Shown here one piece after another: positions 2,391-48,835 of a stretch of 64,000 nt of DNA. Source of the DNA: Zygnema cylindricum (taxonomy: Eukaryota; Streptophyta; Zygnematophyceae; Zygnematales; Zygnemataceae). Position 1 is the stretch's first letter, and every line of letters begins with the position of its first letter. The notes under the pieces are model-generated. The model worked only from the letters and a program-made list of their open reading frames with translations. It was not told the DNA's origin and did not search any database. The position numbers were made by a program, and so were the translations under genes. The stretch is from NCBI GenBank assembly GCA_037447655.1, contig JBBHKE010000536.1:126100-190099 (forward strand), in the 5' to 3' direction.

Positions 2391-2528
2391 AATGTGTTTT
2401 ATCATTTTATAAATTGAAAGCAATCTTTATCCATTCAACTAGCGGCCAAACAGAGGAGTTGTTTACAAAACTTTTAGATTCGTTGTTTCATTGTAAAAAA
2501 CAATCTGAAAAATCCAACAAACCACATG

Positions 2529-3179
2529 TCAGCCAAATTTTTCCAACATGTTTCCTATCGCTTCTTTTTGAGTTAGCCTAATGATTTTCTTTTCTCTATC
2601 TCTTTCAACTTGTATTCCAAGAATGTATTTAGCCTCACCCAAATCCTTCATTTCAAATTTGGAATTAAGAGCGTGTTTTACTCTAGCAATTCCTTCTTTG
2701 TTCCTACTAATTAGTAGGAAATAATCAACATACACAGCAATGAATATCACCTCATCAAGATTATCACCACATATCACATATACTGAATGATCTGAGCTAA
2801 TTCTAGTAAACCCTAATCCTGTCAAGAACTCATCTAACTTTTGATTCCATTGCCTATGGGCCTGTTTTAGGCCATACAAAGATTTTAAAAGTCTGCACAC
2901 AAGATTTTCATTTCGTGCTTCCTCATAACCCTCTAGTTGCTTCATAAATATGATCTCATCTAAATCACCATGCAAAAAGGCAGTTTTGACATCCATTTGG
3001 TGGATGTCAAAATCCTCTATAACAGCTAATATAAGTAAGATGTGTACAGATGGAAAACTTACAACTGGTGAAAATGTTTCTTCATAATCTATCCCCTCTT
3101 TTTGATTATATCCCATAGCAACCAAGCGAGCCTTATACCTGTCTATGGTATTATCTGGGTTCAATTTTAATTTAAACAC
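2529..3179 (-). pseudogene. Copia reverse transcriptase fragment (E1)
   Basis: Typical copia [19 protein letters not shown], a DVKTAFLHG motif, SLYGLKQA and DLGEAKYILGIQ. The catalytic motif reads YVDYF instead of YVDDL, losing the second Asp. The frame ends inside the LTQKEAIGNMLEKF motif where the element is truncated. 3180-3815 holds the degenerate linker between integrase and RT, with stops in every frame. Confidence 0.9.
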
Positions 3180-3815
3180 CTATTTACTTCCAATAGCCTT
3201 TTCTTCTGGAGGAAGTTCCACCAAATCCCATGTTTGGGCCTCCATGATTGACTTCATTTCCTCATTAACCGCTTCCACTAAGTGTTCCCTTTCATTATTC
3301 GAAAAGCTTTTGTCAACGTTAGAGGCTCTTTTATGTGTGCTGAGTGAGCAATGGCTACATTTTCTCCCCTAAGTCGCGCACTTCGCCTCACTCCACCTGG
3401 AAATTTTAGCGCTGGTATAGATGGTTGGGTCCTCCTCCTTGATACATGTGATTATTCTTGTGATTTAGTTTCGGCATGAGGTAGAGGAGAGTTTGCAACT
3501 CTTTGGGGTATAATACTCTTCCTATTTTGGCGGAGAAGATGATTGCAAGTCACTTTGAGCTAATGTAAATGCATTTTCTAATTTTTTCTTGAAAAACATG
3601 TGATTTTCCTCTAATAAAATATAATCAACACTTTTATCCTTCTTCTCATCTATACGCTCATTAAATACATCGACTCATTTTCCTTCATCCTTCACAATAA
3701 CGTTTTTGGCTAACACAACTCTATTTCTGTTAGTGTTATACACTCTATAACCTTTGGCATGATCGTCATACCCTAGAAATAGCCTTGGTATACCTTTTGG
3801 TTCTAGCTTCTATTT

Positions 3816-4523
3816 CTACGGATCATTATCTAACATAAAAACCTTACTTCCAAAAATCGTGAAGTGACATACATTTAGTTTGTGTCCAGTCCAAATATCA
3901 TAGGGAGTTTTATCTTTTACTGCCCTTGTTTCTAGCCTGTTTCTCACATAAGGTGCACAATTAATATCCTCTGCCCAAAACTTGTAATCTATGTCTATAT
4001 CAGCCATCATTGTCCTAGCACACTCTGGTATAGTCCTATTCATCCTCTATGAAACACCGTTTTGTTCCGGAGAATAAGGAACAGTAAGCTGACGTGATAT
4101 TCCATGTAATTTTAAGAATTCCGTAAACTCATTAGAAATGTACTCCCCTCTATTATCAGATCTGAACCCTGCTATCTTTCTCTCATGTAGAGATTCAACC
4201 CAAGCCTTATACTCCTTAAATTTTGCAAAGACTTCATCCTTACTTTTCAAAAAATAAACTGTAGTAAACCTACTATAGTCATCCGTAAAAGTAAGCATAA
4301 ACTTAACCCCTCCCACAGATGGGTATCTAGATGGCCCCCATACATCTGAATAAATTAGTTCTAGCACCCTGCTACTTCTATGATCAGTTTGCGAAGGGAA
4401 AGACAACTTATGGATTTTTCCCATTGCACAACCATCACAAACATTTGATGCTGGTTTTTGATTAATTTTTACACCTTCCACCATTTTTTGATTTACCATC
4501 TTTGCTAATCTATCATAATTCAC
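3816..4523 (-). pseudogene. Copia integrase fragment (E1)
   Basis: Contains the pre-integrase zinc region (CDGCAMGKIHKLSFPS), then SDVWGP, TDDYSRF and SDNRGEY carrying the first two catalytic Asp residues, then PEQNGVS. The catalytic Glu codon of the expected NGVxE motif is a TAG stop at 4044-4046, and the frame resumes as RMNRTIP after it. 4524-4862 is the diverged protease/pre-integrase region. Confidence 0.9.
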
Positions 4524-4862
4524 ATGTCCTAAATGTTTATGTCATAAATCACAATCACTGATTACACTTGAGTACATAACATCATTGTCATTATCATTTG
4601 CAAGACTTAACCGATACAAATTGTTTCCTCCAGCAAATCCTTCTGCAGCTATTTTCCCATTCTTACTCACTATTTTCTTTCCATTCTCAGATATAGTTTT
4701 AAAACCTTTCTTTTATACCACAGACGTAGAGAAAAAGTTTCTTTTAAAAGATGGGACATGCAACACATCTTCCAAAACCCTTTTCACAGGTTTTCCCTCT
4801 ACGTTCAACATAAGTGACACCCTCCCCTTTGCTTTTGACTCAACAAAGGTATCACCACTAAA

Positions 4863-5070
4863 TTAAATTTTGATGGGTGACATAGATTGAATACTCTCAA
4901 ATAGATGGCGATTACGGCACATGTGGGTAGATGCACCGGAGTCCATTATCCATTCGTCTTCCTCCACGCCTTCCGTTGCTTGTGTTATCGCAAAGTATTT
5001 ATCTTCACTGTTGTGAGGAAAGCTGCTCACATCCTCCTCCATAAGTTCGTTGAAAAGAGCAGTTGGTTGT
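4863..5070 (-). pseudogene. Copia aspartic protease region (E1), fused in frame to LTR sequence
   Basis: The motif EWIMDSGASTHMC is the copia protease active site with the DSG intact. The open frame continues without a stop into the LTR at 5071-5924, reaching an ATG in the LTR (MTTAASSSSS...). The LTR-encoded Gag start peptide is thereby joined to the protease. I treat this as an accident of insertion. Confidence 0.85.
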
Positions 5071-5924
5071 TGTTGTTTTGAAACAACAACTGGCACTGAA
5101 GATGAAGAAGATGAAGAAGATGCAGCAGTAGTCATCGTAGAACAAATCAAGAGAGGAAGCTTCCACAAATACCGATGGCTGAACAACAACTTTGACAGAC
5201 TATAACTTTCAAAATAAATGCTCCAATAGTCCTGGATATTTACCACAACATAGATAACTTATAAAAGAACACACACACAAAATTTCAATCAATTCCGCTG
5301 ACAGATCTGTGAGATATGCAGAAATGAAATTACATAAAACTGAGTGTACAGTTTTCATATCATTTGTTCCTAAAAATAATCAAATTCACTAAGTCCTACT
5401 TCTATACACCGAAACTACACTAAGCTGTACGGAGGCATTCCAGCCGTACATCTAACATTCTAACACAACAAATACTGTGAGTATACCTGTGTACTGAAGA
5501 TATGTCATAAACCACATTCTCAACACTAAACAACTAAGTCACTACAGACAAAGTTCTATTCTACCAAATATTTACACCGAAGTTCAGACAACGTAAAGCG
5601 ATAGTGATCTAGTCACGCCTCGTCAATATTTGTTGGCGACGGCTGTCACCCATCTGATTAGAGGATTTGGCACCGTAGGACTGACTTTACGAAGTCTCGT
5701 GGTCCTGCCGAATTTCCGTACGTCCACTGAGGACATACTCACGCATTCTCTCAAGTGACGACACGTGTCCCAAGTGTGAATGAACCATGAACTCCCAACT
5801 TCACTGTCACACTAATTTTGGTAAGTACTGAACTGAACTCAACCAAAAATAGCTTAAGTCTTGAACAGCTCTCTCTCCCTCACAGCTGAGGCATAGAGAC
5901 GACTAAAGCTTTCTAAAAACAACA
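5071..5924 (-). mobile_element. LTR of a copia family, inserted in E1 gag
   Basis: An 854-bp sequence bounded by TGTTGTT...AACAACA, closely matching the solo LTR at 9977-10841 in the same orientation. In minus orientation its last bases encode MTTAASSSSSSSSVP... ending in CA, as expected for a 5' LTR of this group. The flanking 5-mers (GTTGT and ATTTT) do not match, so it is not a clean solo LTR; deletion or recombination between elements is likely. Confidence 0.85.
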
Positions 5925-6802
5925 ATTTTCCACCTGATTGAAAATGAACACGACTTTCGTCCCAACCAGAGCGAAAATTTCTTGTGGCTTTCGCTCTCTT
6001 GTAAGCATGACACATTCTGAACACATGCCCTTTTTCATCACAATAATAGTAGGTTAATGGTGACCTTGTAGGACCACTACCTCTACCAATGCCACTGTCA
6101 TTTTTAGAGTCTGAAAATTGGTTAGCTAGTGCTTGCACAGACTTACTACTACCTCTTTGTGAAATTTGGTAAGCTTCTTCACTTAAAATAAACTGAATTG
6201 CGAACGCAATATTCCGCTAACGTTGTGGAAGACCCCTAAGCCTATCTATGGCTCCCTTATATTCATGGGGCAGAGTTCTCATCAACAACATAACTTACAG
6301 AGGTGGTGAAAAATCCCCACCTGCACTAGTACTCTGAAGGAACAACCTTTTCATAGCATGGAAATGACCTGACATACTACCTCCAAAATACTTAAATTCA
6401 AAGATCTGAGTGGCTATGTTAGTTTTGACACTAACATCTAGCTGAACATACATAGCACGTACACTAAACCAAGCTTTAGAGGTATTTTTCATCTCAAGAT
6501 ACGACATTACCAAGTCTTTTGTCATTGACTATTTTTAGGCCGTTGAGGCAACGGAGATTCTTCTTTCTCCAATCCAGCGCAATCTCATCGACAGTTCCTT
6601 CCACAAAGGGTGACAAGTCCCTCTCCTCAAAATATGAGCTTAATACATCTTCCCAATATAAGTAGTCAGTTCCATCAAAAAGAGGCAATTTGGGCGGTGG
6701 GCCCATAACCTGTTGAAGGTCATAGGCATTCTCACTTGGTTGTGATCCACTCCCACTAGGAGTCACACTTGCACCAACGGGAACAGAGCCAGTATCCGAC
6801 AT
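5925..6802 (-). pseudogene. Copia Gag fragment (E1)
   Basis: Begins MSDTGSVPVG and reaches the conserved Gag opening LQQVMGPPPKLPLFDGTDYLYWE. The first 30 codons lie in the presumed 5' LTR and the VMGP codons lie in the primer-binding site. It continues through frameshifts (near 6500 and 6295) to a degraded zinc knuckle at about 6040 (CDEKGHVFRMC, first Cys replaced by Tyr). Interrupted by the LTR at 5924. Confidence 0.85.
6696..6710 (-). promoter_or_regulatory. Primer-binding site, initiator tRNA-Met anticodon arm (E1)
   Basis: The minus strand reads GGTTATGGGCCCACC immediately after an LTR-like end (...TTCAACA). Its complement contains GGGCCCATAACC, the anticodon stem-loop of initiator tRNA-Met (recalled, not looked up). 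This is the primer type of Drosophila copia and yeast Ty5. The site is inside the Gag frame. Confidence 0.75.
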
Positions 6803-7428
6803 CTTAGCAGAAGCAAACCCAAAGAGAAATGCCTAGTAGACTAGATCTATAGTGTAAGATTTGTAACTCCAAATGAAAGAGGTCTTTTAACCATACAAAC
6901 ATGTACTACAAGTAAATCAAAGAGAGTTGAGCACAAAACACCTTAAACTGCACTCAGTGCTCTCATTTCCTTAAACTCTTGTGTAGAATGTACATTTTGT
7001 ATCAAACCGGTCATTCCTAATTGAATTAAATACTCTAAAGATCTTCGAAATATCTAAAACTTATGTACAAGGTTCACTAGACAATCTACTAACAAACATC
7101 TAAGGGTTTGGACCAGAATTGTCCACTAACAATATCTGTACTTTAAAAATCTGGGTGATTCTTATCACGTCTACATTCATTGGCGGCCCTACACACTAAT
7201 TTACTTAAAGATAAGTATTCGTGTAGATACTACAAAAAATCCACACTAAATTTGGTCAATCTTGAACAATTGGTATTCCAAAAAAAATCAAAGTCCTAGA
7301 CCCAAATTTCTAAGACTTACTAAAGCTTGTTTTTCAATAACATCCATCCCATTTGCACCATTACAGGCTTTACAAATGATCGTAATATTGACTCGCTTAG
7401 GTCTATCTCTACCGACGAGCGTAGTTAA
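6711..7428 (-). mobile_element. Probable 5' LTR remnant of E1
   Basis: Starts TGTTGAAGG directly beside the primer site and contains the Gag start codon at 6800-6802. No sister copy exists in the window, so the outer edge is unknown; the LTR-like DNA must end before the gypsy frame opens at 7429. It is not the same family as 5071-5924 or the long LTRs further right. No other content seen in 6900-7428. Confidence 0.45.
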
Positions 7429-7869
7429 CTTGACCCACACATCAGTTTTCTAGATAATAGGAAGGTTGTATTTTTAGTCAATGGTGTCATACTGTCATTA
7501 CCACTTATGGACACCGGTGCAAAACCAGTTACTTTGGGGTCATCTTTTGCACTGAAACTAGTTCCGACAGCTAATAAACTTCAGTCCACTTCCACACGTT
7601 TACTCACCTCAGCGGGAACAACCGAACGAATTTTGGGCATTACGAAAGATCCACTCTGTTTTAGGTTTCTAAATGGTACAGAATCTGATTTTCCGGAAGC
7701 TCGTGCTCACACATTGGTCACCAAATGTAGTGATTACGAGTGTTTAGTGGTGCAAGATGTGATTTTCAGAGTAGGAGGTGGCGTTGATATGTACAATCAG
7801 ACTTTTTCCTACCGTCCTACCAATTATACGGAAAAGAAAATCTGTCTCCCTCTAATTTCAGCACGCTAA
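7429..7869 (+). pseudogene. Retroviral-type aspartic protease (gypsy element)
   Basis: Hydrophobic strand VVFLVNGVILSLPL followed by MDTGAKPVTLG, with the D-T-G active site at about 7510-7518, as in Ty3/gypsy proteases. The frame is open from 7429 (a stop lies at 7426-7428) to the stop at 7867-7869. The ATG at 7507 is internal to the domain and is not a real start. Confidence 0.75.
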
Positions 7870-7933
7870 CCCATACCCATTATGGCTCACGCAACCGGAT
7901 CTATCCCTGCTTATTCTGGAAATTCGATGGGAT

Positions 7934-9100
7934 TTGAAATTTTTCATTCTTTTCGCAGAGGAAATTCTGCCCGACAATCCTTCTTTGCCTGAACTTTTCG
8001 ATAATCTAGGTTTTATTATTGATTCTCGCAATTTTGATCACATCTACAAACATACACTTCAGATTCTTTTATCGCTGGTTCCACCTCTTCCTCTTATTTC
8101 TGTAGATCCTTCCGTTTTTCTTCCTATTAATTAGAAACTAATTCAGGTCAAACCTCATCAAGATGGTCTAGTCATTTTAGACCTATTCGTAGGCATAGGT
8201 ACCTCTCTACTCTCATGCCTTCGTAACGGATTACTTATCAAGCACTACTACTCAGTTGACATAGACCCTTTAGCTCGGAAAGCCCAGACACATCACTATT
8301 ATATTTTACACGGACAATATCCACATCTTTTCCCTAAATCTGCCTTTGCTCACATACATACAGCCTTACCTCAAGATATTCGTTTGATAGGCAATCAATA
8401 CCTTCTCGATGTGGAACCAATTGATCTTCTCTTTGCCGATTGGGAGTGTCAGGAATGTAACGAGCAGGCAAAGGTCTCGGCTTAGCTGACCCTCGCACTA
8501 AATTATTCTTTGAATTACTTCGTATCATGCATTTTCTGCAATCATTCGATCGACCATTAGGATATATTTTGGAAAACATGGAAGCCTATAACGATCCTCA
8601 ACCTACAATGTTAGCTGATTACAAGCGGATAGAAGCATTAATTGGTCCTCCTCTTATCATTGATGCGGCTCGCCACGGGTCCTTAGCTCATCGGGTCCGA
8701 TCTAAATGGACCAACTTGATCGATACTGGTCGCCTTCGAGAGGGAAATCTTTCTGTCAAACCCTCTTATACAGATATTCAGAGTACACTTCTCCCTTTCT
8801 ACAAAATCCAAACATGTTTGCAACCTGATCACCCGCCGAATTACAACATCAACGTCTCACGTCAACCACTCAAAGTTCTACCCACTCTATTGTATTATCC
8901 ACACTCTCATGCTTTCTATGGTGATGGGCCCGGCCTGCTTAGAAATATTCACACAGGCGACTTAGATGAACCTACTACCACAGAACAGGAACACCTTATG
9001 CATTTCCTTCCCAACACTACAGTTGCTCATGGTCTCACAGAACGACAGCGCTAAATCCTTTTAGGTCGTGTCATGGACCCTCAATCCCTCTCATTTATCC
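7934..9100 (+). pseudogene. DNA (cytosine-5) methyltransferase domain within the gypsy polyprotein
   Basis: Motif I (SAM binding) is ILDLFVGIGTSLLSC at about 8174-8218. The acidic ribose-binding segment YYSVDIDP is at 8246-8269. Motif IV contains WECQ at 8441-8452, with the catalytic Cys present and Glu where Pro is usual. RAGKGLGLADPRTKLFFELLR follows from 8461, motif VI ILENM is at 8567-8581, and the target-recognition/late motif DAARHGSLAHRVRSKWTNL is at about 8662-8718. Further on, GLTERQR (8 codons before the stop at 9052) and LGRVMD fit motif X. Damage: TAG at 8132, a one-base frameshift between 8453 and 8461, and TAA at 9052. The 60 codons before motif I are unassigned. The domain most resembles Dnmt3/DRM-like and green-algal retroelement enzymes. 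Confidence 0.85.
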
Positions 9101-9754
9101 GAGGCCTCGAATTTGCAACAGGTCGTTACGCACAAACCCATCCGTCTCAACCAACTGGGGGGGGAGAATGCATCATCAATTTCTAAACACATACCTACAC
9201 GATCTCCAGTCACCCTTAGAGGACACCTTCTCAAGTTTTCCTCTTTCCATCCCCTATAAAACCTTCTCCAGATGTCACAATCTACGATTTCTTAAACCTT
9301 AGCCACATGTCATGGTCCATTCCAGATGTACTGCTTTCCAATCTGCTCCCCCTATTCATATGTCAACACCTTCTCACTGGACCGCTACTATTCCTACTCG
9401 CAGCTGGCACCATTGGACAAACTGCTTACAGGAAACACCGGTTGTTTACTCATTAGCACCGGTTGTATACTCATTAGGTCAGTCACTTATCACGGATGAA
9501 CAACTAGCTTTTGCACAAGCCGTGGAAGCGATGACGATTAAAGGTTCGGGAACTCCTAAATGGAAATTTAACTCTAATCTCTCTCAATCTGAACATGACC
9601 TACTGAACTAAGTGATTCTCTGGAATATCGACGCTTTTGATTTCTGTATGAATGATCTTGGTCGCCATACCACCTACAAAATGTCTACAGATCTCGAAGA
9701 AGATCGATCATTTACAAGCCGAGACATCGCTTATCTGAAACGGAATGGGAATTA
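9101..9754 (+). pseudogene. Linker between methyltransferase and RT (gypsy)
   Basis: Broken coding sequence in shifting frames. The best preserved part, 9430-9746, reads QSLITDEQLAFAQAVEAM...NIDAFDFCMNDLGRHTTYK, the acidic segment that usually precedes gypsy RT. There is a short tandem duplication at 9439-9478 (ACCGGTTGTWTACTCATTA twice). No separate gene is inferred. Confidence 0.6.
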
Positions 9755-11369
9755 GTGGACCAACGCTGCGCTGAATTGGAGGAAGCTGGCCGCATTTATC
9801 GATTGGATTCTACTTTTGCAGCACCCACTGTCATGTCCAAAAAAAAAGATGCCGAAGGAAACTTTACCGATCGCCGGATGTGCGGCGATTACCATGAACT
9901 CAATGCTAAAACGATACAAGATCGACATCCAATGCCATTGGCCGAAGAAATATTTGATCATGTAGGAGGCGCTAAATGTTGTTCAGAGACAACTGCTGGC
10001 ACTGAAGATGAAGAAGATGCAGCAGTAGTCATCGTAGAACAAATCAAGAGAGGAAGCTTCCACAAATACCGATGGCTGAACATCAACGTTGACAGACTAT
10101 AGCTTTCATTTAAATGCTCCAATGGTCTTGAAAATTTACCACAGTGTCGACAACATACAAAGAGACACACACAAAATATCAATTTATTCCGCTATTAGAT
10201 TTGTGAGATATGCAAAAATGAAATTACATAAAACTGAGTGGACAGTTTTCCTATCATTTGTTCCTAAATAATCAAATTCACTATGTCCTACTTCTATACA
10301 CCGAAACTACACTAAGCTGTACGGAGGCATTCCAGCCGTACATCTAACATTCTAACACAACAAATACTGTGAGTATACCTGTAACTAAAGGTATGTCATA
10401 AACCACATTCTCAACACTAAAAAACTAATTCACTACAGACAAAGTTCTATTCTACCAAATATTTACAACGAAGTTCAGACAATGTAAAGTGATAGTGATC
10501 TTGTAAAACCTCGTCAAGTGATGGTGATCTAGTCAAACCTCGTCAGTATTTGTTGGCGGCGGCTGTCAGCCGTGCGATTAGAGGACCGTAAAACTGACAT
10601 CACGAAGTCCCGTGGTCCTGCCGAATTTCCGTACGTCCACGGAGGACATACTCAGGCATTCTCTCAAGTGACCACACGTGTCCCAAGTGTGAATGAACTG
10701 TGAACTCCCAACTTCACTGTCACACTAATTTTGGTAAGTATTGAACCGAACTCAACCAAAAATAGATTAAGTCCATAACAGCTCTCTCTCTCTCTCTCAC
10801 AGTTGAGGCATAGAGAGGACTAAAGCTTTCTAAAAACAACACTAAATATTTTAGTATTCTGGATTTACGACAAGGCTTTAACCAGATTGAAATTGAGGAG
10901 AAGGATAGGCATAAAACCTCCTTTTGGGGTAGTGATGGTCGTTGGGAGTGGTCTGTCGTGCCTTTTGGACTTAAGAACGCCCCCACAGTTTTTCAAAAAG
11001 TAATGGATTCAGTTTTAGGTGGTTGCAAGTTTGCACGATGTTATATTGATGATTTGATTATTGCCTCTGCCACAATTGAAGATCACGCAACTCATATCGA
11101 ATGGATCCTAACTGAACTGAAAAAGGTCGGAGTAAAATGTCATCCAACTAAATGTACTTTCGAGTCTGAGGGTGTGCCTTACCTTGGACATTTCATTTCC
11201 TCCGAGGGAATCACACCACTTGAAGCAAAAACCAAGGCTATCAGCAAACTGCCAACACACGTTGATCTCACGAGTCTTCGAGCCTTCCTAGGACTAGCTA
11301 ATTTTTATCGTAGATTTGTCCCTAGTTTCAGCACTGTCGCTTCACCATTCAATGATCTACTCAAAAAAT
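9755..11369 (+). pseudogene. Ty3/gypsy reverse transcriptase, split by a solo LTR
   Basis: The N-terminal half (9755-9976) has ELEEAGRIYRLDSTFAAPTVMSKKKD and RMCGDYHELNAKTIQDRHPMP. The C-terminal half (10847-11369) has LDLRQGFNQIEIEEKDRHKTSF, VPFGLKNAPTVFQ, the catalytic YIDDL at about 11042-11056, and YLGHFISSEGI. Leaving out 9977-10846 (LTR plus one target copy, 870 bases) the frame is continuous, so the LTR arrived when this reading frame still matched. The stop at 11369 lies between RT and RNase H. Confidence 0.92.
9977..10841 (-). mobile_element. Solo copia LTR with CTAAA target duplication
   Basis: An 865-bp TGTTGTT...AACAACA sequence flanked by CTAAA at 9972-9976 and 10842-10846. It matches 5071-5924 over its full length. 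The orientation is minus: that strand ends with an ATG at 10030-10032, 18 codons and then CA, the phase seen at other Gag starts here. The internal region and second LTR are absent, as expected after LTR-LTR recombination. Confidence 0.92.
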
Positions 11370-12060
11370 AGGTCCCTTTCGTATGGGGACCTGATCAGAT
11401 TTTGGCTTTTCAGAAGTTGAAAGATGCCCTCTCTAGTGCTCCCATCCTCCGACCTCCTAATCACAAATTACCTTTTTGCCTACAAACAGACTTTGGAAAG
11501 CTTGGCATTGCGACCATCTTAACTCAGCGTGAACTAACAGGAGAAGAATACGTGGTCGCTTACGCAAGCAGAAGTAATAATCGTGCGGGGTCAAATTACA
11601 CTAGTTATAAATGAGAATGTCTGGCGGCGGTTTGGGGTATTGTACACTTTCGTCACTACCTTTACAAAAAACAGTTTACAGTTCTAACGGACCATCAACC
11701 TTTACATTGGCTAATGACGAACGATAAATTGTCAGGAAAACTAGCGCGATGGGCATTAATTTTACAAGAATATGATGTGGAAATAATTCACCTTCCAGGA
11801 TTACTTAGCCTGAATGCAGACGGCATTTCCCGAAATCCTTTGCCAAGTACCACAGACAATGGAGTCCGGCAAGATTTCGATGACGACTTAGCTTCTATGT
11901 CAACAGGGTTTTATATCAAACATTCTTTAGTTGCGCTGCCCGACTCCCATTTTGCCCCAGATCTATGGCGAGACGGAGCACTAATTCTTTTCCTCTCCTC
12001 ACAAACCTTCCGACTAGGCACTACATTCGAGGAGGAGGAAAGAGTAATGAAAAGAGCTTA
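11370..12060 (+). pseudogene. RNase H and connector (gypsy)
   Basis: Contains FCLQTDFGKLGIATILTQ (first catalytic Asp), ECLAAVWGIVHFRHYLY after a TGA at 11612-11614 (catalytic Glu), TDHQPLHWLM and a LNADGISR motif. The frame is the same as RT with two stops (11367-11369 and 11612-11614). After about 11860 comes an unconserved connector ending at 12058-12060. Confidence 0.9.
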
Positions 12061-12885
12061 AAATTATCTTTGGTTAGCGCTAGTTCAATTGCTAGGGGAC
12101 AGTAGTCAAAGACACGTGCCTCTCCTGACTGAACGCCTCTCGCTAATGGAACAAATTCACACAAAACTGGGTCATTGGCGCGCTATTGGTGGTTTGGGAT
12201 GTAATCTGATGTCGCAGGGGTATTTCACAAGTGTGCCATATGTGATCGTCTAGGTACCTCTTTAAGCAACCGACAAACTACCCTCCAACCATTACCCATC
12301 AAGGGGTTATTTTACCGCTGGTCGTGCGATTTGGCAAGCCCCTTTCCGATTTCCCGGAGGGGGAAACAATATATAATGATCATGATTGAAAGATTTAGCA
12401 AATGGGTTGAAGTAGTAGCGTTACCACACAAAACTGCTAAGCTCACCAACGCCGCTTTTAAAGAACATGTCTTTATGAGATACTCCGCTTCAGCCGAAGT
12501 CCTCACAGATCAAAGGACTGAATTCCGCGGAGAATTCCAAGAAATGCAAGATGACCCTCTCATATACCATCGTCAAACCAGTCGCGATCAATCACAAGCT
12601 GATGGATTGGCAGAACGTGCAGTTTAGACCTTCAAGCGGGCATTACGCAAGCATTGTTTGGAGAAACATATAAAAGTGTGGGACGAGTCACTTGGCTATA
12701 TTGCCATTGGGTATCGAATGTCGGTACAGGCGAGTCTTGCTAATTTCAGTCCATACTATGTCTTATTTGGGCATCAACCCTTGTTGGGTAGGAATATCCA
12801 GAAAGCTGCAAACTTTCCGCTTCCCTTACTGTCTGACAAAGTTTTTCTGGAAGAACTTACTAACAGGGTGTTGTTTTTTGCCTGA
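12061..12885 (+). pseudogene. Gypsy integrase
   Basis: A disrupted HHCC zinc region lies at about 12150-12260 (GHWRAIGG and, in another frame, CAICDRLG). The core starts near 12318 with SCDLASPFP (first Asp), then FSKWVEVV, VLTDQRTEF (second Asp) and GLAERAV (Glu). A TAG follows at about 12625. 12658-12885 continues with SLANFSPYYVLFGHQPLL. At least two frame changes. Confidence 0.88.
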
Positions 12886-12889
12886 GAGA

Positions 12890-13070
12890 TGCCCATGGCT
12901 TTTGACAACCTACAGATCGCCCAACACCGAGATACTTTGCGCTTTGCCACTACACTCAGCGGCAGCTACCAGCCCCAGCAGAAGCCTTACCGAGTGGGAG
13001 ATTATGTCTACTTACGGCGCCAATCCTTCGATACCTTGGACACAGATGTTTCACCTCATATTCTTTGAAT
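12890..13070 (+). pseudogene. Integrase C-terminal tail (GPY/F-like)
   Basis: A frame containing YRVGDYVYLRR and SPHIL resembles the small beta-barrel tail that follows gypsy integrase cores ('GDyVyl...'). A one-base frameshift just after it leads into IIKVD...LRLQGAD and the PHD finger. Confidence 0.6.
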
Positions 13071-13092
13071 TATCAAAGTAGACACGAATAGC

Positions 13093-13410
13093 ATGCTAAG
13101 ACTTCAAGGAGCCGATACGCGAACCTTTCGGGAGCGTTCGAAAAACTGTGCTCCATGTTGTTTACCGGATCTCTCCAAGGACATGGACCCTATGCGTATG
13201 CCTATCACTGAGGCTACAGAATGCACACTTTGCAACCGAGCCGACGGAGAAACATCAATGCTTCTATGCAACCATTGCAACAAGGGATTTCACATGGAGT
13301 TTTTGGTTCCTGCGTAAACTACGGTTCGGGACGGTCATTAGTTTTGCCACGGCTGCCAAGAGTTACCAGTCGAATTGGCCAGCTCTTCGGAAGGCTAAAG
13401 AGCTAGGGGG
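13093..13410 (+). pseudogene. PHD-type zinc finger at the end of the gypsy polyprotein
   Basis: ECTLCNRADGETSMLLCNHC is followed by NKGFHMEFL: Cys-x2-Cys, Cys-x2-Cys and His of a C4HC3 finger. The position of the next Cys is Phe. The last pair (FCHGC) is at about 13343-13357 in the shifted frame, after a stop. PHD fingers read histone H3 tails, so the domain may have guided integration to particular chromatin (inference). Confidence 0.75.
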
Positions 13411-13414
13411 GGAA

Positions 13415-14931
13415 TAAACTGAGCCTCCTAGCTTACTCTCCCACCTTACCTTTGTTTTTCTTATGATATGTTTATTTATTGCTTGCTGCTTGTACATATT
13501 CATTTTCACTTGCTCTCTGAGATTTTCATGACTTTCTCGCTTAATTCGTTATCATTTATCTTTCAGCTGGTTGTGTTGCATGTTTATCATTTCCTTTGTC
13601 ACATGCACGACAACTGTCATGCCGTATCACGTCGGCACAATATATTATTTTTAAGCGTATGGAAATGGTCTTTCGAATGGGACGCCACACTAATTTAAAC
13701 GTGTGTATGTTTCGATGACGAGAGGGCCGTACAAATTCCGGTCAGACGTCGTGAAACCTGCGGACGATTTGGATTCCGTACATGACGTCGATAGTCGCCG
13801 AAATTCCGCGAACGGACTTAACTTGCCGGCCGAAATTTTCCGCGAACCAGTTTGAGTTTTCGTCCGTACAACTGGTGACGCGAAATGACAAACGACAGAA
13901 TTTACATGTACCACCATTGACACAAATGTGAATCCACGGCCACAAAGGATGCATAGGAACGGACGATTCGGATTCAGTCTGCACACGACGACGCAATTGG
14001 TTAATTTAAGTCGTGGACCCTTGGAGGTCTCACGCATTCACACGTAGCATAGGAACGGTTTTTATCCTTAGTTTGTAGATTTTGTAACTCAAGGCATACG
14101 ATTCTGGTCGCCTCAGATCGAAACTAGAAGCAAACAGCTACATAAAATACATTTATTCATAGTAAGGTAGATGCTCAGATGTAGAATTTGTACTTAGCAA
14201 ATTTTAGGTGAAATATATGCTCACAACTTCATTTGCACAGGAATTCTCTCTTTGGAAGATTTAACCTAAATTTCTAATATTTTCTTGTAAAATTGTCAGG
14301 ATAGTTTTAGTGGCTATTTTTCTTTCCATTTAAACGTTCTGCTGCCTAGTTCGCACTCACCTTTCTTTGTAATCTGCCTTGCAATTTAATCTACGCGGCT
14401 CACGCTGAGGCCTAACCGGTTTCCCTTCACTTTTTCTCTCGTCCTATCAAGTGGATAGCTGCTCAACCTTCTTTCTCAGGTTGTTGTTGAACCTTGGATT
14501 GCGATTGGACAGTTTTGGGTTTGCTTGTGTGGTTTACTAGGGGATACTGGATTAGGGTTGGCTTTCCTTATATGTTTTGTGTGTGACTAAATCTGGTTAT
14601 CTCAGATTTGCTCGCAGTTTGCTACATTTTTAGTTTATGTGTTTTGATATTAGGATAAATCTTTATTTATTGAACTCCTGTAAGGAATATATACTGACCA
14701 AGGAGCCTAGTGGCTATCCGTTGGCTTAATAATAAACTGAGCCTCCTAGCTTCCTCTCCCACCTTACCTTTATTTTTCTTATGATATGTTTATTTGTTGC
14801 TTTTGCTTGTACATATTTATTTTCACTTGTTCTCTGAGATTTTAATGACTTTCTCGCTTATTTCGTTATCATTTATCTTTCAACTGGTTATGTTGCATGT
14901 TTATCATTTCCTTTGTCACATGCACGACAAC
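13415..14931. repeat. Direct repeat pair flanking 1.1 kb of unassigned DNA
   Basis: About 195 bp starting AATAAACTGAGCCTCCTAGC at 13413-13611 recurs at about 14730-14931 with few changes. The first copy begins right after the gypsy polypurine tract, so it may be the start of the gypsy 3' LTR and the second copy a partial sister. The DNA between is a GC-richer block (13690-14045) of unknown nature, then ordinary AT-rich DNA. LTR ends could not be fixed. Confidence 0.6.
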
Positions 14932-15345
14932 CTTTTTTTCATAAACGCGTATCGAGTAACGGGTAACAATTTAGGACCATGACATAACCCGACCGGATTT
15001 CGGGTGTTCAGATTTGAAAAAAATAATATTGGATTCGGGTATAGGAAATTTTGACTTTTGCAATCTCTACCCGTCTGATAGCTATACATCATTTTCTTTA
15101 AAGATATTTGAGACCTTAGACTCGTCTATCGAAAACTTTTTGCGCAACAGCGCTCGGCGAACTTTCCAAGTTATAGGGCTTGACAGCCCTTCTCCAACTC
15201 TCATGTCGGCTTTCTACCGCCAACGCATCTCTGTCGCCCTTCAATATACACAAGCTTCTACCATTATTTGACATAGCACGGTGGTGATTGATGGCTGAGA
15301 ACTGTGAGACTTACCCATGCGCCACCCGACGCATATAGACGAAAT
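14932..15345 (+). mobile_element. Unclassified repeat RB, copy 1 (degenerate)
   Basis: About 410 bp shared with 18462-18895: starts with a T run and CGTATCGAGTAACGGGTAAC, then ACCCGACCGGATTTCGGGTG, then a coding-like tail. The frame 15014-15271 contains ETLDSSIE..., ARRTFQV and FYRQRISVALQ, conserved in copy 2. The family is unknown. Confidence 0.6.
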
Positions 15346-15349
15346 TTGT

Positions 15350-15669
15350 GGTTTTGGAATGTATTGGTTTTGGAAGGTAGTGGTTTTGGAAGGTAGTGGG
15401 TTTGGAAGGTAGTGGTTTTGGAAGGTATTGGTTTTGGAATGTATTGGTTTTGGAATGTATTGGTTTTGGAATGTATTGGTTTTGGAAGGTAGTGGTTTTG
15501 GAAGGTAGTGGGTTTGGAAGGTAGTGGTTTTGGAATGTATTGGTTTTGGAATGTATTGGTTTTGGAATGTATTGGTTTTGGAATGTATTGGTTTTGGAAT
15601 GTATTGGTTTTGGAAGGTAGTGGTTTTGGAATGTATTGGTTTTGGAAGGTAGTGGTATTGGCGCGTAGT
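15350..15669. repeat. 16-bp minisatellite, about 20 units
   Basis: Head-to-tail copies of GGTTTTGGAATGTATT and its variant GGTTTTGGAAGGTAGT, with occasional GGGTTTGG variants. Runs of one variant alternate with the other, indicating local amplification. The minus strand is open through it because 48 bases make a 16-residue period (NTFQNQYIPKPIHSKT); I do not regard that as a gene. Confidence 0.95.
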
Positions 15670-15895
15670 GGATTTGGCGAGGGGGGGATTTTTGGAGGGT
15701 AGTGTTTGGGAAAGTAGTGGTTTTGGCGGGGAGTGGGAGACAGGGAGGATTTTTTTTTGTACGGATAAATAGAGGGTGGAGAGGGGAGAGAGAAGGAGAG
15801 CGGGAAGGAGGGGGGGAAGGGGAGGAGGAGGGAGAGGAGGAGGGGAAGGGGAAGGGGGAGGGGGAGGGGAAGGGGGAGAGAGGGGGGGATTTGAT
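15670..15895 (+). repeat. G-rich and GGA-rich purine tract
   Basis: From 15775 to 15890 the plus strand is nearly all purine with many GGGG runs. It could form G-quadruplex or triplex structure. 15896-16290 is ordinary AT-rich DNA in which I see nothing. Confidence 0.85.
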
Positions 15896-19348: not shown

Positions 19349-19555
19349 TTTACGGAGGGAGATATATGTACGGAAACGTGATTTAACATAGGGCTAGGAC
19401 CCGTTGGTCCAATTTGAGAGCAAAAAATGATTTTCGGAAATATAACACTATTCCTCAATATCTATATTCAAATTAATACCTTTGGGCATCTGTTTGAAAA
19501 ACTTTAAATAGGGGCGACTTTTGTTCGTTTGGAGCCCTGGACGGCGTATCCCTAG

Positions 19556-19691
19556 GGCGACGTCAGCAAACGTGTAACTTTGTCCCTCGGGCGACGTCAG
19601 CAAATGGGTAACTTTGTCCTTTAGGCGACATCAGCAAACTAGTAACTTTGTTCCTCGGGCGAAGTTAGGAAATGGGTAACTTTGTCTCTCG
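19556..19691. repeat. 34-bp tandem repeat with ACGTCA motifs, 4 units
   Basis: Units begin GGCGACGTCAGCAAACGTGT and end with AACTTTGTCCCTCG; starts at 19556, 19590, 19624, 19658. Flanks 19480-19555 and 19692-19770 match a second locus at about 24540-24775, where a shorter repeat array is present, so the array belongs to a dispersed element. 19771-20538 has only a small duplication (CTTCGTTCGTGACCG twice, about 19816-19860) and a hairpin CTTAAGAAAA...TTTTCTTAAG near 20210-20240. Confidence 0.88.
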
Positions 19692-20816
19692 AGCACCTCA
19701 ACCATCTGGTAACTTTCAAAGTACCCCCTTGGCGTCAGATCTTGGCTTCTTGATCTTGTCAATGAATATAAAGAAAGTCGCCATCTGCACTAACGAGTCT
19801 CCAACAGGGATACTTCGTTCGTGACCGCCAGTTCATCACTGCTTCGTTCGTGACCGTCAGATCATAGAATGCCGCTGAAGCTATTCATCCATATCAAGCA
19901 GTACGATTTCGATTAGGGACCATATGCAGACCCAGAGGACCATAGGCACACGAAAGCGTCGGAAAACCATTGTCTCTAAGAAAAATTCAATATGAAATGA
20001 ATTGGGGAATTGGTAACAAAAAAAGAGGATTCAAAGACAAGAAAGCTAAGCAAGCCTAGGGTAATTAGGTAAATACCACCATAAGCTAGCAGCCCAGTTG
20101 CCAAAGTTTCGGATAGGGAGAGAATAAAAGAAATCAACAAGGAATCCCTAAGCGACAGGGAGCCAAGAGGCACGAAAATTGGAAATTTACGATGACCTAT
20201 ATGACCTCGCTTAAGAAAATAATGACTTTTTCTTAAGAGAACTTGTCAGCTGGGTTGTAACAAATATACTAGGAAAAAAATGTTAGTAAGCTCTCAAGGA
20301 TTTTAGCCTAGAATGAAATCCCCAGGCATGTTTCATGAGAACCCTATCTCATAATACCAGCCGAAGATGACACCTACATAGAGAATGAGGTTGCAACCAA
20401 GCCAATGTCGTGCCATCAATTCTGATGATTCCACATAGGTGCCAAACCTTGACGACGACGCCAAAGAAGCTATTTTATCAATGGCGTGACCTAAAATCTT
20501 ACACAATCCAGTTGCCCGAGCAACATCGACAAATTGTAGTGTTGTGTATCGGTAAAATATTTATCGCGATAACACCGATACCGCTAGTTTTCGGTTATGG
20601 AACGGTCAGAGGTCGCGATATATCGGTCCGAGACCAACAAATTCCATATCGACGATAACTTGAAAAATATAGTATGCATACAATACTACTTTATAACATA
20701 CTGTATTATATTATTGACTTTATATAGCGTGGCATGCCACGTATAAGAATCTGTTCTGTCTCTGTTTAAGTGCGATTTATTACGGACCGCGCAGCACATA
20801 AACGTAGGCCGGTTAG

Positions 20817-35126: not shown

Positions 35127-38100
35127 CTAGTCACTTTTCAATTTTAATCCACAGTTTTCTCTGCAATAAATCAACTTAGGGGAAGGCACTGCTTTTGTCA
35201 TCATGTCTGCAATCATTTCTCTATCAGTTTTATGAACCAGTTTAATAATTTTATTTTCTACCTTCTCTCTGACAAAGCTTAGTCTAATATCCATATGCTT
35301 AGCTTTGAAGTGATGTTTCGGATTAGCTGCAATCGAGATAGCAGCTTGATTATCACAAAAAACATTTTGAGTTCCAGACTTCATGAACCCAAGTTCTTCA
35401 AGAAGAGATTTAACCCACATTAATTCTTTGGTGGCAGCACAGGAAGCCATGTATTCAGCCTCCATAGTGGACTGAGCAACTACTTTTTGTTGCTTGCTAC
35501 TCCAACAACATGCACCGGATCCAATTTGCAACACATATCCAGTCGTACACCTCCTTAAAGGCACATCTCCATAACTAGCATCACTCCAAGTGGTGATGTC
35601 AGTGTGCTCCCCTCCCAAATGCAACCATAATTCCCTTGTCCCCACCAGATACCTCATCACTCTTTTGGCAGCCTCCCAATCTCTCTTTCTTGGTTCATTT
35701 AGATTTCTACTAAGGACACCTACAGCTGCAGCTATATCCGGACGGGTACAGTTCATAAAATAAATTAAACTGCCTACAATCTGCCGATATGGGATATTTT
35801 CCATAAATTTTCTTTCTATCTCGTCCATCTCATCATTAATGATGAATATTCCTCCTTCTTCACTCCCCTCACTCACTTTCTTCAAATCCATGGGAGTAGT
35901 ACATCCGTTTGCTTTCTCCATTTGAAATTTTTCTAGCATATTACCGATTGCTTCTTTTTGAGTGAGTCTTATAATTCTATTCCCTCTATCTCTCTCCATC
36001 TGAATTCCCAAAATGTACTTTGCTTCGCCAAGATCTTTCATATCAAAACTGCTTCTAAGATCCCGTTTTAGTTTGTTAATTTTATCTAAGGACTTGCTTA
36101 AGACCAACAAATCATCCACATAAATAGCAATAAATATCACTCCATTCTCATCTTCAAATAAATATATAGAGTGATCTGAACTAATTCTGATATACCCCAA
36201 ACCGGTCAGAAATTCGTCGAGCTTTATATTCCACTGTCGCGGGGCTTGCTTAAGCCCATAGAGTGATTTTATCAGTTTGCAAACTTTGTTTTCTTCCCCA
36301 CTTTCCACGAATCCTTCCGGTTGCCTCATGTAAATTTCTTCTTCCAACTCTCCGTGCAAAAAGGCAGTTTTAATATCCATCTGGTGGATTTCCATATCCT
36401 CCGCTGCGGCTATACTTAAAAGGATTCTAACAGAAGGAAATCTGACTACAGGTGCAAAGGTTTCTTCGTAGTCTATCCCCTCTTTCTGTGTATAACCTTT
36501 TGCAACTAACCTAGCTTTGTACCTCTCAATGGTATTATCCGGGTTTAATTTAAGTTTAAACACCCACTTACATCCGATCGGTTTTCGGTCCGGTGGACAA
36601 TCTACCAACTCCCATGTATTGGCTTCCATAATAGAGGCCATTTCTTCATTTATAGCTGTGATCCACCGGCTACTTTCTGGAGTGTTTATGGCCTCTAAGT
36701 ATGTTTGAGGTTCATCTGGGTGAGACATCTTTGTGAGTTGGTTATTTGCTTGTCTTTCTTGAAGTCGTTTACTACTTCTTCTTCCCCCTTCAAAATCGGA
36801 CGCCGGTATGGAAGGCATCCTTGGGTTTCTTTTTGGGAGATTTTCAGCTCCCCTATCTTCCAATTCTGGTGTCTCATCAAGTTCCTCATCGGTTTCCACT
36901 TCGTATTGTGGCGTTGCCTCGGATGTTGTCCTTTCCTCCTTCTCCTTTGGTAGATCTGCAGATTTTTCTTTTTCTCCCTCTTCCTTCTCTTCATTTTCAA
37001 AGTCAAAGTCAGAAAACTGATCCGTTTCAAATCTGATTTTGACTTCCTTATTATATTTGAATGGATCAATGGACTTCTCTTCATTCATCACCACTATGTG
37101 TTTTACCAAAATTATATCTCTCTTTTTCAAGTCATACACTCGGTATCCTTTTGTGCTCTCATCATATCCTACAAGATATCCTGGTTTCCCTCTTCCCTCT
37201 AACTTCCATTTAGTCTTATCGGAATCCAAACTGTAGACTTGACTTCCGAACACTCTCAAACTAGACAAATCAGGCTTTCTTCCTGTCCACCTCTCATACG
37301 GAGTTTCCTCCTTATTTGCTGAAGTTAGGACTCTATTTTTGATGAAATTAGCATAGTTCATAGACTCAGCCCAAAACTGCAGCCCTATCCTCTTATCACT
37401 TAACATACTTCTGGACATATCTCCTAAAGTTCTATTCACTCTTTCTGCTACTCCATTTTGTTCCGGATTATAGGGAACAGTTTTCTCATGATGAATTCCT
37501 TCTTCTTTAAGATATTCTTCAAAATCCCTTGAGGTGTATTCTTTCCCATTATCACTTCTTATCTCTTTTATTGAGGTTTCATGTAGCTTTTCACTCCATA
37601 CTTTATACTCTTTGAAACATCTTAATACCTCTGACTTATGTCTAAGAAAGTATACCTTCGTGTATCTAGACCAATCATCTGTGATAGTTAACATCCATCT
37701 TTTCCCCCCATGTGAGGCATACCTAGCAGGTCCCCAAACATCAGTGTGAACTAGATCTAATACTTTCTCTCTCCTAAATGTGGTTGCCTTTGGAAATGGA
37801 AGTCTATGAATCTTCCCTTGGGCACATCCACTACAATCATCAAAGGTCTCATCATCTTCAAAAGTAATACCCTCCACTATTCCATTTTTCTTCATTTTCT
37901 TTAATCTATCTAGATGCACATGCCCCAACCTTTTATGCCAAAGCATCATCTCACTTGCACACGAGTAGAGAACACTCTTTTCATTGCAAAGTACAATTCT
38001 GAACATTCCTTGACTGCCCTTCTCAGCTATGAAATAAACCTCATTATCAAAGCTTGCTGTGAAGATTCCTTTCCTAGTTCCTGTTTCAAACTCCTTTTCA

Positions 38101-39563: not shown

Positions 39564-40434
39564 TGACCCACAAAATGAGCAGCCTATGTAAAGCCTCTAG
39601 GATAATATTTGCCCTTTCTACTTTCCCGCTGAATAAGCGCCACCCAGGCACACAAATATTCTGACCACTCTCACCCTTGTGAGGACAAGACTCCCCTGAG
39701 TCAAACGCAAAAAGAATCACTGAATTTGCTCACCCGAGCAGTAAGTTATGGCTGGTCAAAGATGACCTTTATAGTTACAAGCTCTCTTAGAGAGAGAGGT
39801 ACCTAAATATTACTAAGTCTCGGTCTGCCTACTCACGACTACCTAATATTAAACCCTAGTCCAATAGGAACACTATAAAGTACAAGAAGGTACAATGGGC
39901 GATGTACTTATTGTACAACTATTGTACGACAAGGTCTACAAGGTGACACCTGTCATATCGGAAGCCATGGTTCCTCCTCCCATCTTCTCCGGTATCAAAT
40001 AATGTGGCGCCACGTGGCACCGCGTGACGCTATATCCGTATGCCGCCGAAAAGCTCACTTCGCGTGGCGGCTATAATGCCGGCCGTCCGATCAAAACCTA
40101 TTTTACACGGTTCAGATTCGCGTACATGCAGAAATTGCTCATTTTGGTTAGTCTGCTGTTAATTAGCTGTTTCGTTAATATTTATATATTTATGAAACCC
40201 GTCACGTGTATCGTTTCGTAACGCCTTAATGGTTAAGGCGTTAGGCTACAAAGACTACAGAGGTCACAGGTTCAAATCTAGACCTAGGCACTATTTTAGC
40301 CAAAATACCCTTAACTGCAAAAACTGCCACTTTCTAAATATGGCGGCAGCCATGGCGCGCCTTTGATCCTCACTCTCTTTCTTTAAAACAAAACTAAGAT
40401 AGGGAAGTGAACTATTAATTACCTCTTTTCAACA
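39544..40434 (-). repeat. 5' LTR of the intact element
   Basis: Same length as, and by eye the same sequence as, 34223-35113. It drives the genomic RNA and also supplies the Gag start codon. Confidence 0.96.
40216..40297 (+). promoter_or_regulatory. tRNA-like Pol III cassette in the 5' LTR
   Basis: Same cassette as at 34895-34976, offset by 5321 bases. Confidence 0.65.
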
Positions 40435-47927: not shown

Positions 47928-48135
47928 TTTGACGTCATCAAACAAAGGCGCGAAAACAAACCTGCAGATTTTCAAACTTACCTCTCCTTTCAGCAGTTGC
48001 CTCTTTTACTAGATTATTGGTCGCCATTTCCGCCTGTTTTATGCCTCCGTTCCGTTAATTTCAAAACATTCCAGGTTTTCGTCCCTCACCACCGTATCGT
48101 GTCTACTTGTGGTTCTTTTTTGCTTGGTAAGTTAC
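47928..48135 (+). promoter_or_regulatory. Candidate host promoter with CRE- and E2F-type sites, and first exon
   Basis: TTTGACGTCATCAAA (CRE palindrome) at about 47929-47943, then GGCGCGAAAA at 47948-47957, the complement of an E2F site TTTTCGCGCC. A CT-rich leader-like stretch follows and ends in TTGCTTG|GTAAGT at about 48117-48129, a good 5' splice site. This would fit an untranslated first exon of a cell-cycle-type gene. No coding exon is identified downstream. Confidence 0.35.
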
Positions 48136-48719
48136 TTAACTTTTACCTTATCTTTTTTTTAGTTCATTGTATATACACTGTATGATTACATATGTATTTC
48201 TTTTTGTATGTCGTATATTCACAATAAAAAAAATTAATGCGGTTTCCTCTGTACATTTGTCGACGAAAAATTGACATATTGTACGAAAAAATGACATATT
48301 GTTTTTACTGGATGAGAAGCTTTTTAGGGTTTTTCAATTTTGTTATGGCTTTACTTCATGTTAAGCTTTTCAATTTTTAGCTGCACCCTTCCTGCCCTTT
48401 TATAAGTGTTTTTTAAGATTTTCTTAGGGTTATTCTAGTTTTTTAGCTTAAAAAGAATCTGTTATAAGCACTGACGAAAAGGTAACTTCTGCATACTTCT
48501 GCATATTCTTCAGCATATTTTGTTTTTTTTTGTATTACTGTGAATGATTACCATATATTCTATGTGAACTTTTACGCTTTTCTATGTTTCCGTTTATTTG
48601 TGGTTTTTCATTTTATCTGGCTAGAGGAATTTATTTCACCTTTTTAACCGAGAGTTATTGAGTTGTTGAGTGGAGAGGATGAAAAGAATGGAGGAATTGT
48701 TACGGAAATCCAGCAAAGG

Positions 48720-48835
48720 TTAAGCACGTAGGAAAAAACGAAAAAGAAAGGGAAAAAGAAAAGGGAAAAAAAAGGGAAAAAAAAAGGGAAAAAGAAAAGT
48801 GAAAAGGAAAGGGAAAAGGAAAGAGGAAATTCGAC
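48720..48835 (+). repeat. A/G-only low-complexity tract
   Basis: (A)n(G)3 repeats over about 115 bases with almost no pyrimidine. The minus strand gives a Phe/Ser-rich spurious frame. 48136-48719 and 48836-49193 are AT-rich with no recognisable element. Confidence 0.9.

What the first reader, a model, noticed from the sequence alone, without database searches (positions are those of the whole stretch)
7429..13419. Ty3/gypsy retrotransposon carrying its own cytosine-5 DNA methyltransferase
Between protease and RT, on the same strand and in polyprotein order, the sequence encodes the C5-methyltransferase motif series: SAM-binding DLFVGIGT, an acidic DIDP, a Cys-containing motif IV, ENM of motif VI, the RVRSKWTNL region and a motif X-like end. 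Known: C5-methyltransferases captured by retrotransposons have been reported in dinoflagellates and charophytes. Inference: the enzyme methylated the element's own DNA (hiding it or damping it), or host DNA. This is the strongest candidate for an unusual system here.
Basis: partly seen in the sequence, partly recalled or inferred. Interest (0 to 1): 0.92.

Follow-up and report, generated by a model that had tools for sequence, protein, structure and literature searches.

The report
Retrotransposon family carrying DNA methyltransferase gene
The window holds a broken copy of a jumping gene that carries its own DNA-methylating enzyme between its protease and reverse transcriptase; about 150 related copies were found in the same genome, some apparently recent, and their enzyme has an unusual residue beside its catalytic cysteine.

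Summary
Observation confirmed. Window 7340-14929 is a broken Ty3/gypsy-type element with a DNMT3-type cytosine-5 methyltransferase between protease and RT. A profile built from nine other retroelement proteins finds its two halves apart at E 4.5e-51 and 1.8e-24. The host genome (353 Mb) gave 1387 first-look candidates; 150 were scored, 151 matches reported. Of 12 copies read at length, 11 keep PR-MTase-RT-RH-IN; one is a single 2395-aa frame, Gag to PHD. Ends are split direct repeats A-coding-B-A-B (8 of 9) with 4-bp target duplications (7 of 7). Closest published case: KnitGypsy-Dnmt3 of Klebsormidium (PMC5890265). New here: copy number, PHD finger, and motif IV Glu-Cys in place of Pro-Cys (26 of 26 parsed copies; 8 of 12 relatives; Pro-Cys in 141 of 141 loci from prokaryote and viral collections). 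Median pN/pS 0.18, synonymous sites saturated. Function is inferred: methylation of the element's own cDNA; CpG is not depleted, which speaks against lasting CpG self-methylation. Host unnamed; Zygnema cf. cylindricum is plausible.

The parts
7340..14929 (+). Remnant of the DNMT3-bearing Ty3/gypsy-type element (5'-truncated; Gag and 5' A repeat missing)
   Evidence: Nucleotide homology to genomic copies L180 and L181 starts at 7340; no Gag match in the window. The 3' end is set by the B repeat ending ATGCACGACA.
7429..7866 (+). Aspartic protease region, DTGA at 7510-7521
   Evidence: Sequence; the same piece aligns at the PR position in 11 of 12 genomic copies. No Pfam hit.
8135..8461 (+). Methyltransferase N-terminal half: motif I DLFVGIGT 8180-8203, DIDP 8258-8269, motif IV WECQ 8441-8452
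   Evidence: Retro-MTase profile E 1.8e-24 for the piece 8135-8482; alignment.
8461..9051 (+). Methyltransferase C-terminal half in another frame: ENM 8572-8580, HRVRSKWTNL 8689-8718
   Evidence: Retro-MTase profile E 4.5e-51; PDB DNMT3A E 0.003.
9055..9120 (+). Motif X-like end (LLGRVMDPQSLSF) past a stop
   Evidence: Same motif in genomic copies; frame translation.
9656..9970 (+). RT, N-terminal part
   Evidence: ORF; motif reading, no Pfam hit alone.
9977..10841 (.). Copia-type LTR-like insertion inside RT (related sequence also at about 5071-5924); flanked by CTAAA at 9972-9976 and 10842-10846
   Evidence: Repeat pairs; flanks read.
10844..11368 (+). RT, C-terminal part
   Evidence: Pfam RVT_1 2.2e-26.
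11372..12058 (+). RNase H region
   Evidence: Pfam RT_RNaseH 3.4e-18 for 11615-12058.
12205..12624 (+). DDE integrase core
   Evidence: Pfam rve 1.8e-9.
13220..13314 (+). Decayed PHD finger at the polyprotein C-terminus
   Evidence: Pfam PHD 2.4e-5 for piece 13069-13314; a PHD-like pattern at the corresponding place in 7 of 12 copies.
13413..13612 (+). Repeat B, first copy, directly after a G-rich (PPT-like) tract
   Evidence: 94.5% to the second copy.
13615..14730 (+). Repeat A, 3' copy (5' copy lost here)
   Evidence: Position between the two B copies; 698 of its bases align to L179 at 83%.
14731..14929 (+). Repeat B, second copy, ends the element
   Evidence: end motif as in the copies.

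Best explanation
A dead copy of a large, apparently still recently mobile family of Ty3/gypsy-type retroelements whose polyprotein is Gag-PR-DNMT3 methyltransferase-RT-RH-IN-PHD and whose ends are split direct repeats (A-coding-B-A-B), inserted by a DDE integrase with 4-bp target duplications. SHOWN: identity of the domain, its place, its retention in other copies, co-inheritance with RT, the repeat structure, the target duplications, the Glu-Cys motif IV. INFERRED: the methyltransferase, made as part of the same polyprotein, works in the particle or preintegration complex and methylates cytosines of the new cDNA (or of the RNA/DNA hybrid), so that the copy arrives marked. The PHD finger would tether the integrase complex to histone tails, as chromodomains do in chromoviruses (recalled). 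The domain came from a DNMT3-type gene before this RT clade diversified (inferred from its scatter over the clade).
For: Profile match of both halves. PDB search with a profile of seven retro-MTases: DNMT3A 2e-23, then DNMT3B/3C, then DRM, M.HhaI/M.HaeIII and DNMT2; motif order I to X not rearranged. AF2 model of relative P0005 (pLDDT 71.6): the 50 listed Foldseek PDB matches are all DNMT3 entries. Own genome: 150 of 1387 first-look candidates scored, 151 matches reported, listed identities 62-100%. RT on the same strand downstream, within the 1.5 kb fetched, in 23 of 30 loci; PR-MT-RT-RH-IN order in 11 of 12 longer copies. One fully open 2395-aa frame, whose two A repeats are identical over 931 bp. 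MT and RT distances correlate r=0.993 over 11 copies. Median pN/pS: MT 0.18, PR 0.20, RT 0.06, IN 0.08. In the RT tree the window sits with P0001-P0004 (100/97) inside a 44-row clade (100/99) that includes Klebsormidium, Closterium and Calypogeia rows; MTase rows occur in three of its four main parts.
Against: No test of activity. The published KnitGypsy-Dnmt3 domain gave no methylation in yeast, which its authors call inconclusive. CpG is not depleted: o/e 0.79-0.86 in the coding pieces of the window copy and 0.87-0.93 in eight other copies, while three copia stretches in the window have 0.37-0.50 (the LTR-like insert 0.72), so lasting CpG self-methylation is not supported. Glu-Cys for Pro-Cys may alter or abolish catalysis. 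pN/pS rests on 7-9 copies from few subfamilies with saturated synonymous sites. An RT-led search for copies without the domain did not complete, so the share of MTase-less copies is unknown.
Confidence: 0.55

Rival explanations
1. The domain is kept for binding, not for methylation: a DNMT3L-like, catalytically idle fold that handles nucleic acid or bridges the complex to chromatin.
For: The residue before the motif IV Cys is Glu in 26 of 26 parsed own copies and in 8 of 12 relatives spanning the motif with a Cys; one further relative, P0112, has Ser for the Cys. No CpG depletion.
Against: Cys of motif IV, Glu of motif VI and the motif VIII Arg-x-Arg are retained in the copies aligned; relatives L001, P0007 and P0035 keep PCQ; purifying selection.
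Confidence: 0.25
2. The enzyme acts in trans on the host or on invading DNA viruses (host benefit or damping), as speculated in PMC6338049.
For: Very high copy number makes trans effects possible; hypothesis in print (section 1 part 2 read).
Against: Position inside the polyprotein and tight co-inheritance with RT fit a role in the element's own cycle; no host or virus data here.
Confidence: 0.12
3. The enzyme methylates RNA (element RNA or tRNA primer).
For: RNA methylation was suggested for SymbioLINE-Dnmt; would explain the lack of CpG loss.
Against: Nearest family is DNMT3, not the tRNA enzyme DNMT2.
Confidence: 0.08

Closest known systems
KnitGypsy-Dnmt3 of Klebsormidium nitens (de Mendoza et al. 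2018, PMC5890265; first two of seven parts and sections 9-11 read, passages by search)
   Same: Dnmt3-type, unrearranged methyltransferase inside Pol of a Gypsy element; DIRS-like repeat arrangement; purifying selection. A K. nitens protein (P0020, no methyltransferase in the part listed) falls in the same RT clade.
   Different: Other host genome with about 150 scored copies; PHD finger ('PHD' has no occurrence in the paper's main text); Glu-Cys motif IV (the published motif IV could not be seen: it is in a supplementary figure).
SymbioDIRS-Dnmt3 and SymbioLINE-Dnmt of Symbiodinium (same paper)
   Same: Retroelement-borne cytosine methyltransferase, high copy number.
   Different: DIRS with tyrosine recombinase, or LINE; not Gypsy. 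SymbioLINE-Dnmt is reported CpG-depleted; this family is not.
DNMT3A/B
   Same: Best sequence and fold match, motif order I to X.
   Different: Pro-Cys replaced by Glu-Cys in this branch; about 20% identity in the Foldseek alignments.
DIRS/PAT-type elements with split direct repeats
   Same: A-coding-B-A-B repeat order.
   Different: DDE integrase and 4-bp target duplications in place of a tyrosine recombinase (the DIRS features are partly recalled).

Membership tests
KnitGypsy-Dnmt3-like elements | Dnmt3-type methyltransferase within Gypsy Pol | tested here: met
KnitGypsy-Dnmt3-like elements | Repeat structure as in DIRS | tested here: met
   B pairs in 9 of 12 genomic copies plus the window; A pairs in 8 of 9.
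KnitGypsy-Dnmt3-like elements | Purifying selection on the methyltransferase | tested here: met
   Median pN/pS 0.18 over 19 of 21 pairs of 7 copies; synonymous sites saturated, so rough.
KnitGypsy-Dnmt3-like elements | Same motif IV as the published copies | not testable with these tools
DNMT3 family | Motifs I, IV, VI, VIII, X in unrearranged order and best match to DNMT3 | tested here: met
DNMT3 family | Pro-Cys catalytic dipeptide (recalled as general for C5-methyltransferases) | tested here: not met
   Glu-Cys in the window and in 26 of 26 parsed own loci of 30. Hence called DNMT3-derived, not a standard DNMT3.
DNMT3 family | Clusters with eukaryotic DNMT3 genes in a tree | not tested
   No eukaryotic DNMT3 gene set was at hand; the tree holds only retroelement, bacterial, archaeal and viral-contig rows.
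DNMT3 family | Cytosine-5 methylation of DNA | not testable with these tools
   Needs an assay.
Ty3/gypsy retrotransposons | RT-RH-IN order with gypsy-type RT and DDE integrase | tested here: met
Ty3/gypsy retrotransposons | Same complete LTR at both ends | tested here: not met
   A at 5', B-A-B at 3'.
DIRS elements | Tyrosine recombinase, no target duplication (recalled) | tested here: not met
   rve integrase; 4-bp target duplications in 7 of 7. A tyrosine recombinase was not searched for by itself.

The most novel reading that the evidence does not exclude
A retroelement lineage has replaced the proline of the otherwise conserved Pro-Cys catalytic dipeptide of C5-methyltransferases by glutamate, several times or with several returns (at least 4 changes on the tree), and keeps this Glu-Cys enzyme under selection in a very large family. 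It would be a working methyltransferase with altered chemistry or substrate (for example hybrid, RNA or non-CpG), coupled to a PHD reader and to an integrase acting on split direct repeats.
Probability: 0.3. Interest if true: 0.82.

Novelty: new variant of a known kind. Interest (0 to 1): 0.62.

Why it matters
Retroelements that carry the host's own silencing enzyme raise the question of why an element would methylate DNA. This genome offers a natural test set: about 150 scored copies and many more candidates, some with identical repeat pairs, beside copia elements in which no such enzyme was noticed. If the Glu-Cys enzyme is active, it would show that the Pro-Cys dipeptide is not essential. 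If it is inactive, it would be another case, besides DNMT3L (recalled), of a DNMT3 fold kept for binding. It may also explain a published PHD family expansion as transposon sequence.

Tried and rejected
Rejected: chance motif string. Recent transfer from bacteria or viruses: the 16 retro-MTase rows form one clade, 100/100, against 13 bacterial, archaeal and viral-contig relatives, but no eukaryotic DNMT3 genes could be put into that tree, so their exact origin stays open. DRM: motif order is not rearranged. Ordinary LTRs, with a stray fragment, as the reading of the 3' repeats: the arrangement recurs in other copies with target duplications at the outer ends.

Led nowhere: protein searches with the window methyltransferase piece, plain and length-padded, found nothing at E<=0.01; viral contigs with the single piece gave no relative; Rfam and tRNA scans empty; the family PF01698 as a host test rang nowhere, controls included. 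Copy L179 shows only the methyltransferase, L173 no A pair, and L179, L180 and L181 no B pair within the stretch. In relatives P0035 and P0087 the domain lies after RT, not before it. Rows dropped before the methyltransferase tree: P0081, P0029 and P0112, because badly broken; P0025 and P0118 were left out earlier, as they hold only the tail.
Full report
What is there. On the + strand from 7340 to 14929 lies a decayed retroelement. Pieces searched apart give RT (Pfam RVT_1, 2.2e-26), RNase H (3.4e-18), integrase core (1.8e-9) and a PHD finger (2.4e-5). A protease DTGA precedes them. RT is split by an 865-bp copia-type LTR-like insert with CTAAA on both sides. The 5' part is lost: homology to other copies starts at 7340 and no Gag is found.

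The methyltransferase. Two open pieces in different frames, 8135-8461 and 8461-9051, carry motifs I to VIII, and motif X follows past a stop. PF00145 alone does not recognise either piece, and the read-through stays below the curated cut-off (7.3e-4). PDB search of the second piece gives DNMT3A at 0.003, of the read-through 1.6e-6; the first piece alone gives no methyltransferase. The RT piece, searched with length padding, found 165 relatives, 120 listed. A methyltransferase profile built from nine of them, without the window, matches 19 of the 120 (the nine seeds included; two by the C-terminal tail only) and the two window pieces at 1.8e-24 and 4.5e-51 with nearly contiguous profile positions. 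In 17 of the 19 the domain lies before RT; in P0035 and P0087 it lies after RT. A profile of seven retro-MTases finds DNMT3A at 2e-23, then DNMT3B/3C, DRM, HhaI/HaeIII and DNMT2; PF00145 matches all seven at E<=0.001. The AF2 model of relative P0005 (8-row alignment, pLDDT 71.6, low around motif IV) has only DNMT3 entries among the 50 listed PDB fold matches.

Family in the same genome. The window lies in an assembly of 352.8 Mb in 2689 contigs. The piece 8461-9051 raised 1387 first-look candidates; 150 were scored and 151 matches reported, not every one listed, the weakest listed at E 5.5e-52; 14 of the first 30 have no stop within the match. The window copy itself is the first of these. In the +/-1.5 kb fetched, 23 of 30 loci show RT on the same strand downstream; the window copy is among the 7 that do not, because of its insert. 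Of 12 copies taken as 10-kb stretches, chosen mostly for long open frames or closeness to the window, 11 show PR-MT-RT-RH-IN in order and 7 show a PHD-like pattern; one has the whole series, from two zinc-knuckle-like patterns to PHD, in a single 2395-aa frame. This sample is biased to intact copies. All domains there were found by the window's own pieces or by the retro-MTase profile, zinc knuckles and PHD by simple patterns.

Ends. B repeats of 186-243 bp, 95.7-100% alike, flank a region of about 0.7-1.5 kb (A) at the 3' end in 9 of 12 copies and in the window (94.5%). A second A lies upstream of the coding part in 8 of 9 tested, identical over 931 bp in one, only partly alike in L174 and L177. 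Read by eye from the printed flanks, the outer ends are TGTCATGCCG and ATGCACGACA (varied in L183), with 4-bp target duplications in 7 of 7 copies looked at; in L175, L176 and L183 the BLAST boundary had to be shifted by one to three bases to the element's start. The inner B/A junction is GACA-2 bases-TGTC in 6 of these 7 and in the window, like two element ends joined with two extra bases. That a circle-like or jumping intermediate makes it is inference.

Evolution. In the RT tree (52 rows) the window groups with P0001-P0004 (100/97) inside a 44-row clade (100/99) with named rows from Closterium, Klebsormidium nitens and the liverwort Calypogeia fissa. Of these 44 rows, 21 carry the methyltransferase. 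The label needs 12 changes on the tree as it stands, but all 23 rows without it start at most 268 residues before RT, too close to show the domain, which in P0002, P0005 and P0012 ends 214-265 residues before RT. So one old gain is possible but not shown. In the methyltransferase tree the 16 retro rows are one clade (100/100), and the window pairs with P0002 (98/98), in line with the RT tree. MT and RT distances over 11 copies agree (r 0.993, 0 of 2000 permutations as high). Median pN/pS is 0.18 for MT (19 pairs), 0.20 PR (32), 0.06 RT (25), 0.08 IN (20), with saturated synonymous sites.

Motif IV. The residue before the Cys is Glu in 26 of 26 parsed loci (30 looked at; L145, L148, L154 and L166 gave no reading; L142 is the window copy; the pattern required a Cys, so Cys retention is not measured by it). 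Among 12 relatives spanning the site with a Cys, Glu in P0005, P0008, P0022, P0027, P0030, P0043, P0057 and P0087, Pro in P0007, P0012, P0035 and L001; P0112 has Ser for the Cys. In 141 of 141 loci from the bacterial/archaeal and viral collections it is Pro-Cys (L001, a retroelement, is counted here too), though the scan patterns allowed Glu. The tree needs at least 4 changes. That Pro-Cys is general in C5-methyltransferases is recalled knowledge.

CpG. o/e is 0.79-0.86 in the coding pieces of the window copy and 1.06 in its repeats, against 0.37-0.50 in three copia stretches, 0.72 in the LTR-like insert and 0.82 for the whole window; eight other copies have 0.87-0.93 in the coding part and 0.82-1.63 in the A-B part. 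This gives no sign of lasting CpG methylation with decay. Base composition and codon use were not controlled for.

Host. Not identified. PMC9915684 (passages seen) reports Zygnema cf. cylindricum SAG 698-1a with a 360-Mb assembly, 29.8% Copia, 5.9% Gypsy, and a PHD family at least 9-fold larger than in the other Zygnema strains. Size, the copia-rich window and a PHD-bearing element family fit, so this alga is a plausible host, and the PHD excess may be these elements. This is inference.

Known work. PMC5890265 describes KnitGypsy-Dnmt3 with Dnmt3 in Gypsy Pol and DIRS-like repeats, with no activity in yeast but inconclusive. PMC12344493 (passages) calls the LTR elements Copia, which differs from the 2018 text. 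In the rows that searches (20 of 67 listed) listed, I saw no title or abstract start on such elements in another streptophyte; the library lacks most subscription journals.

Verdict. Real, and a new variant of a known kind. The strong parts are identity, structure and abundance. The mechanism remains inferred.

Noticed in passing
L001 (contig CADCWO010000201.1), 1-6197: A contig filed under a Synechococcales cyanobacterium MAG holds a eukaryotic-type retroelement: Gag-PR-DNMT3 and RT-RH-IN in two ORFs of one frame with a stop between them; probable mis-binning.
   Followed up: partly
P0035 and P0087: Relatives with the methyltransferase after RT instead of before it; possible second capture or domain move.
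   Followed up: no
P0017, Calypogeia fissa: A liverwort record holds an RT of the same clade; [quoted passage not shown] Whether the liverwort copy has the domain was not seen.
   Followed up: no
window 35127-39596, - strand: Intact 1489-aa copia-type polyprotein frame with CpG o/e 0.40.
   Followed up: no
window 2500-6832, - strand: Decayed copia element with an LTR-like insert of the same family as the one inside the gypsy RT.
   Followed up: partly
window 15277-15756 and 19549-19718: 16-bp and 34-bp tandem repeat arrays.
   Followed up: no
window 48001-52000: Drop in G+C to 26-31% against about 40% in the window as a whole.
   Followed up: no
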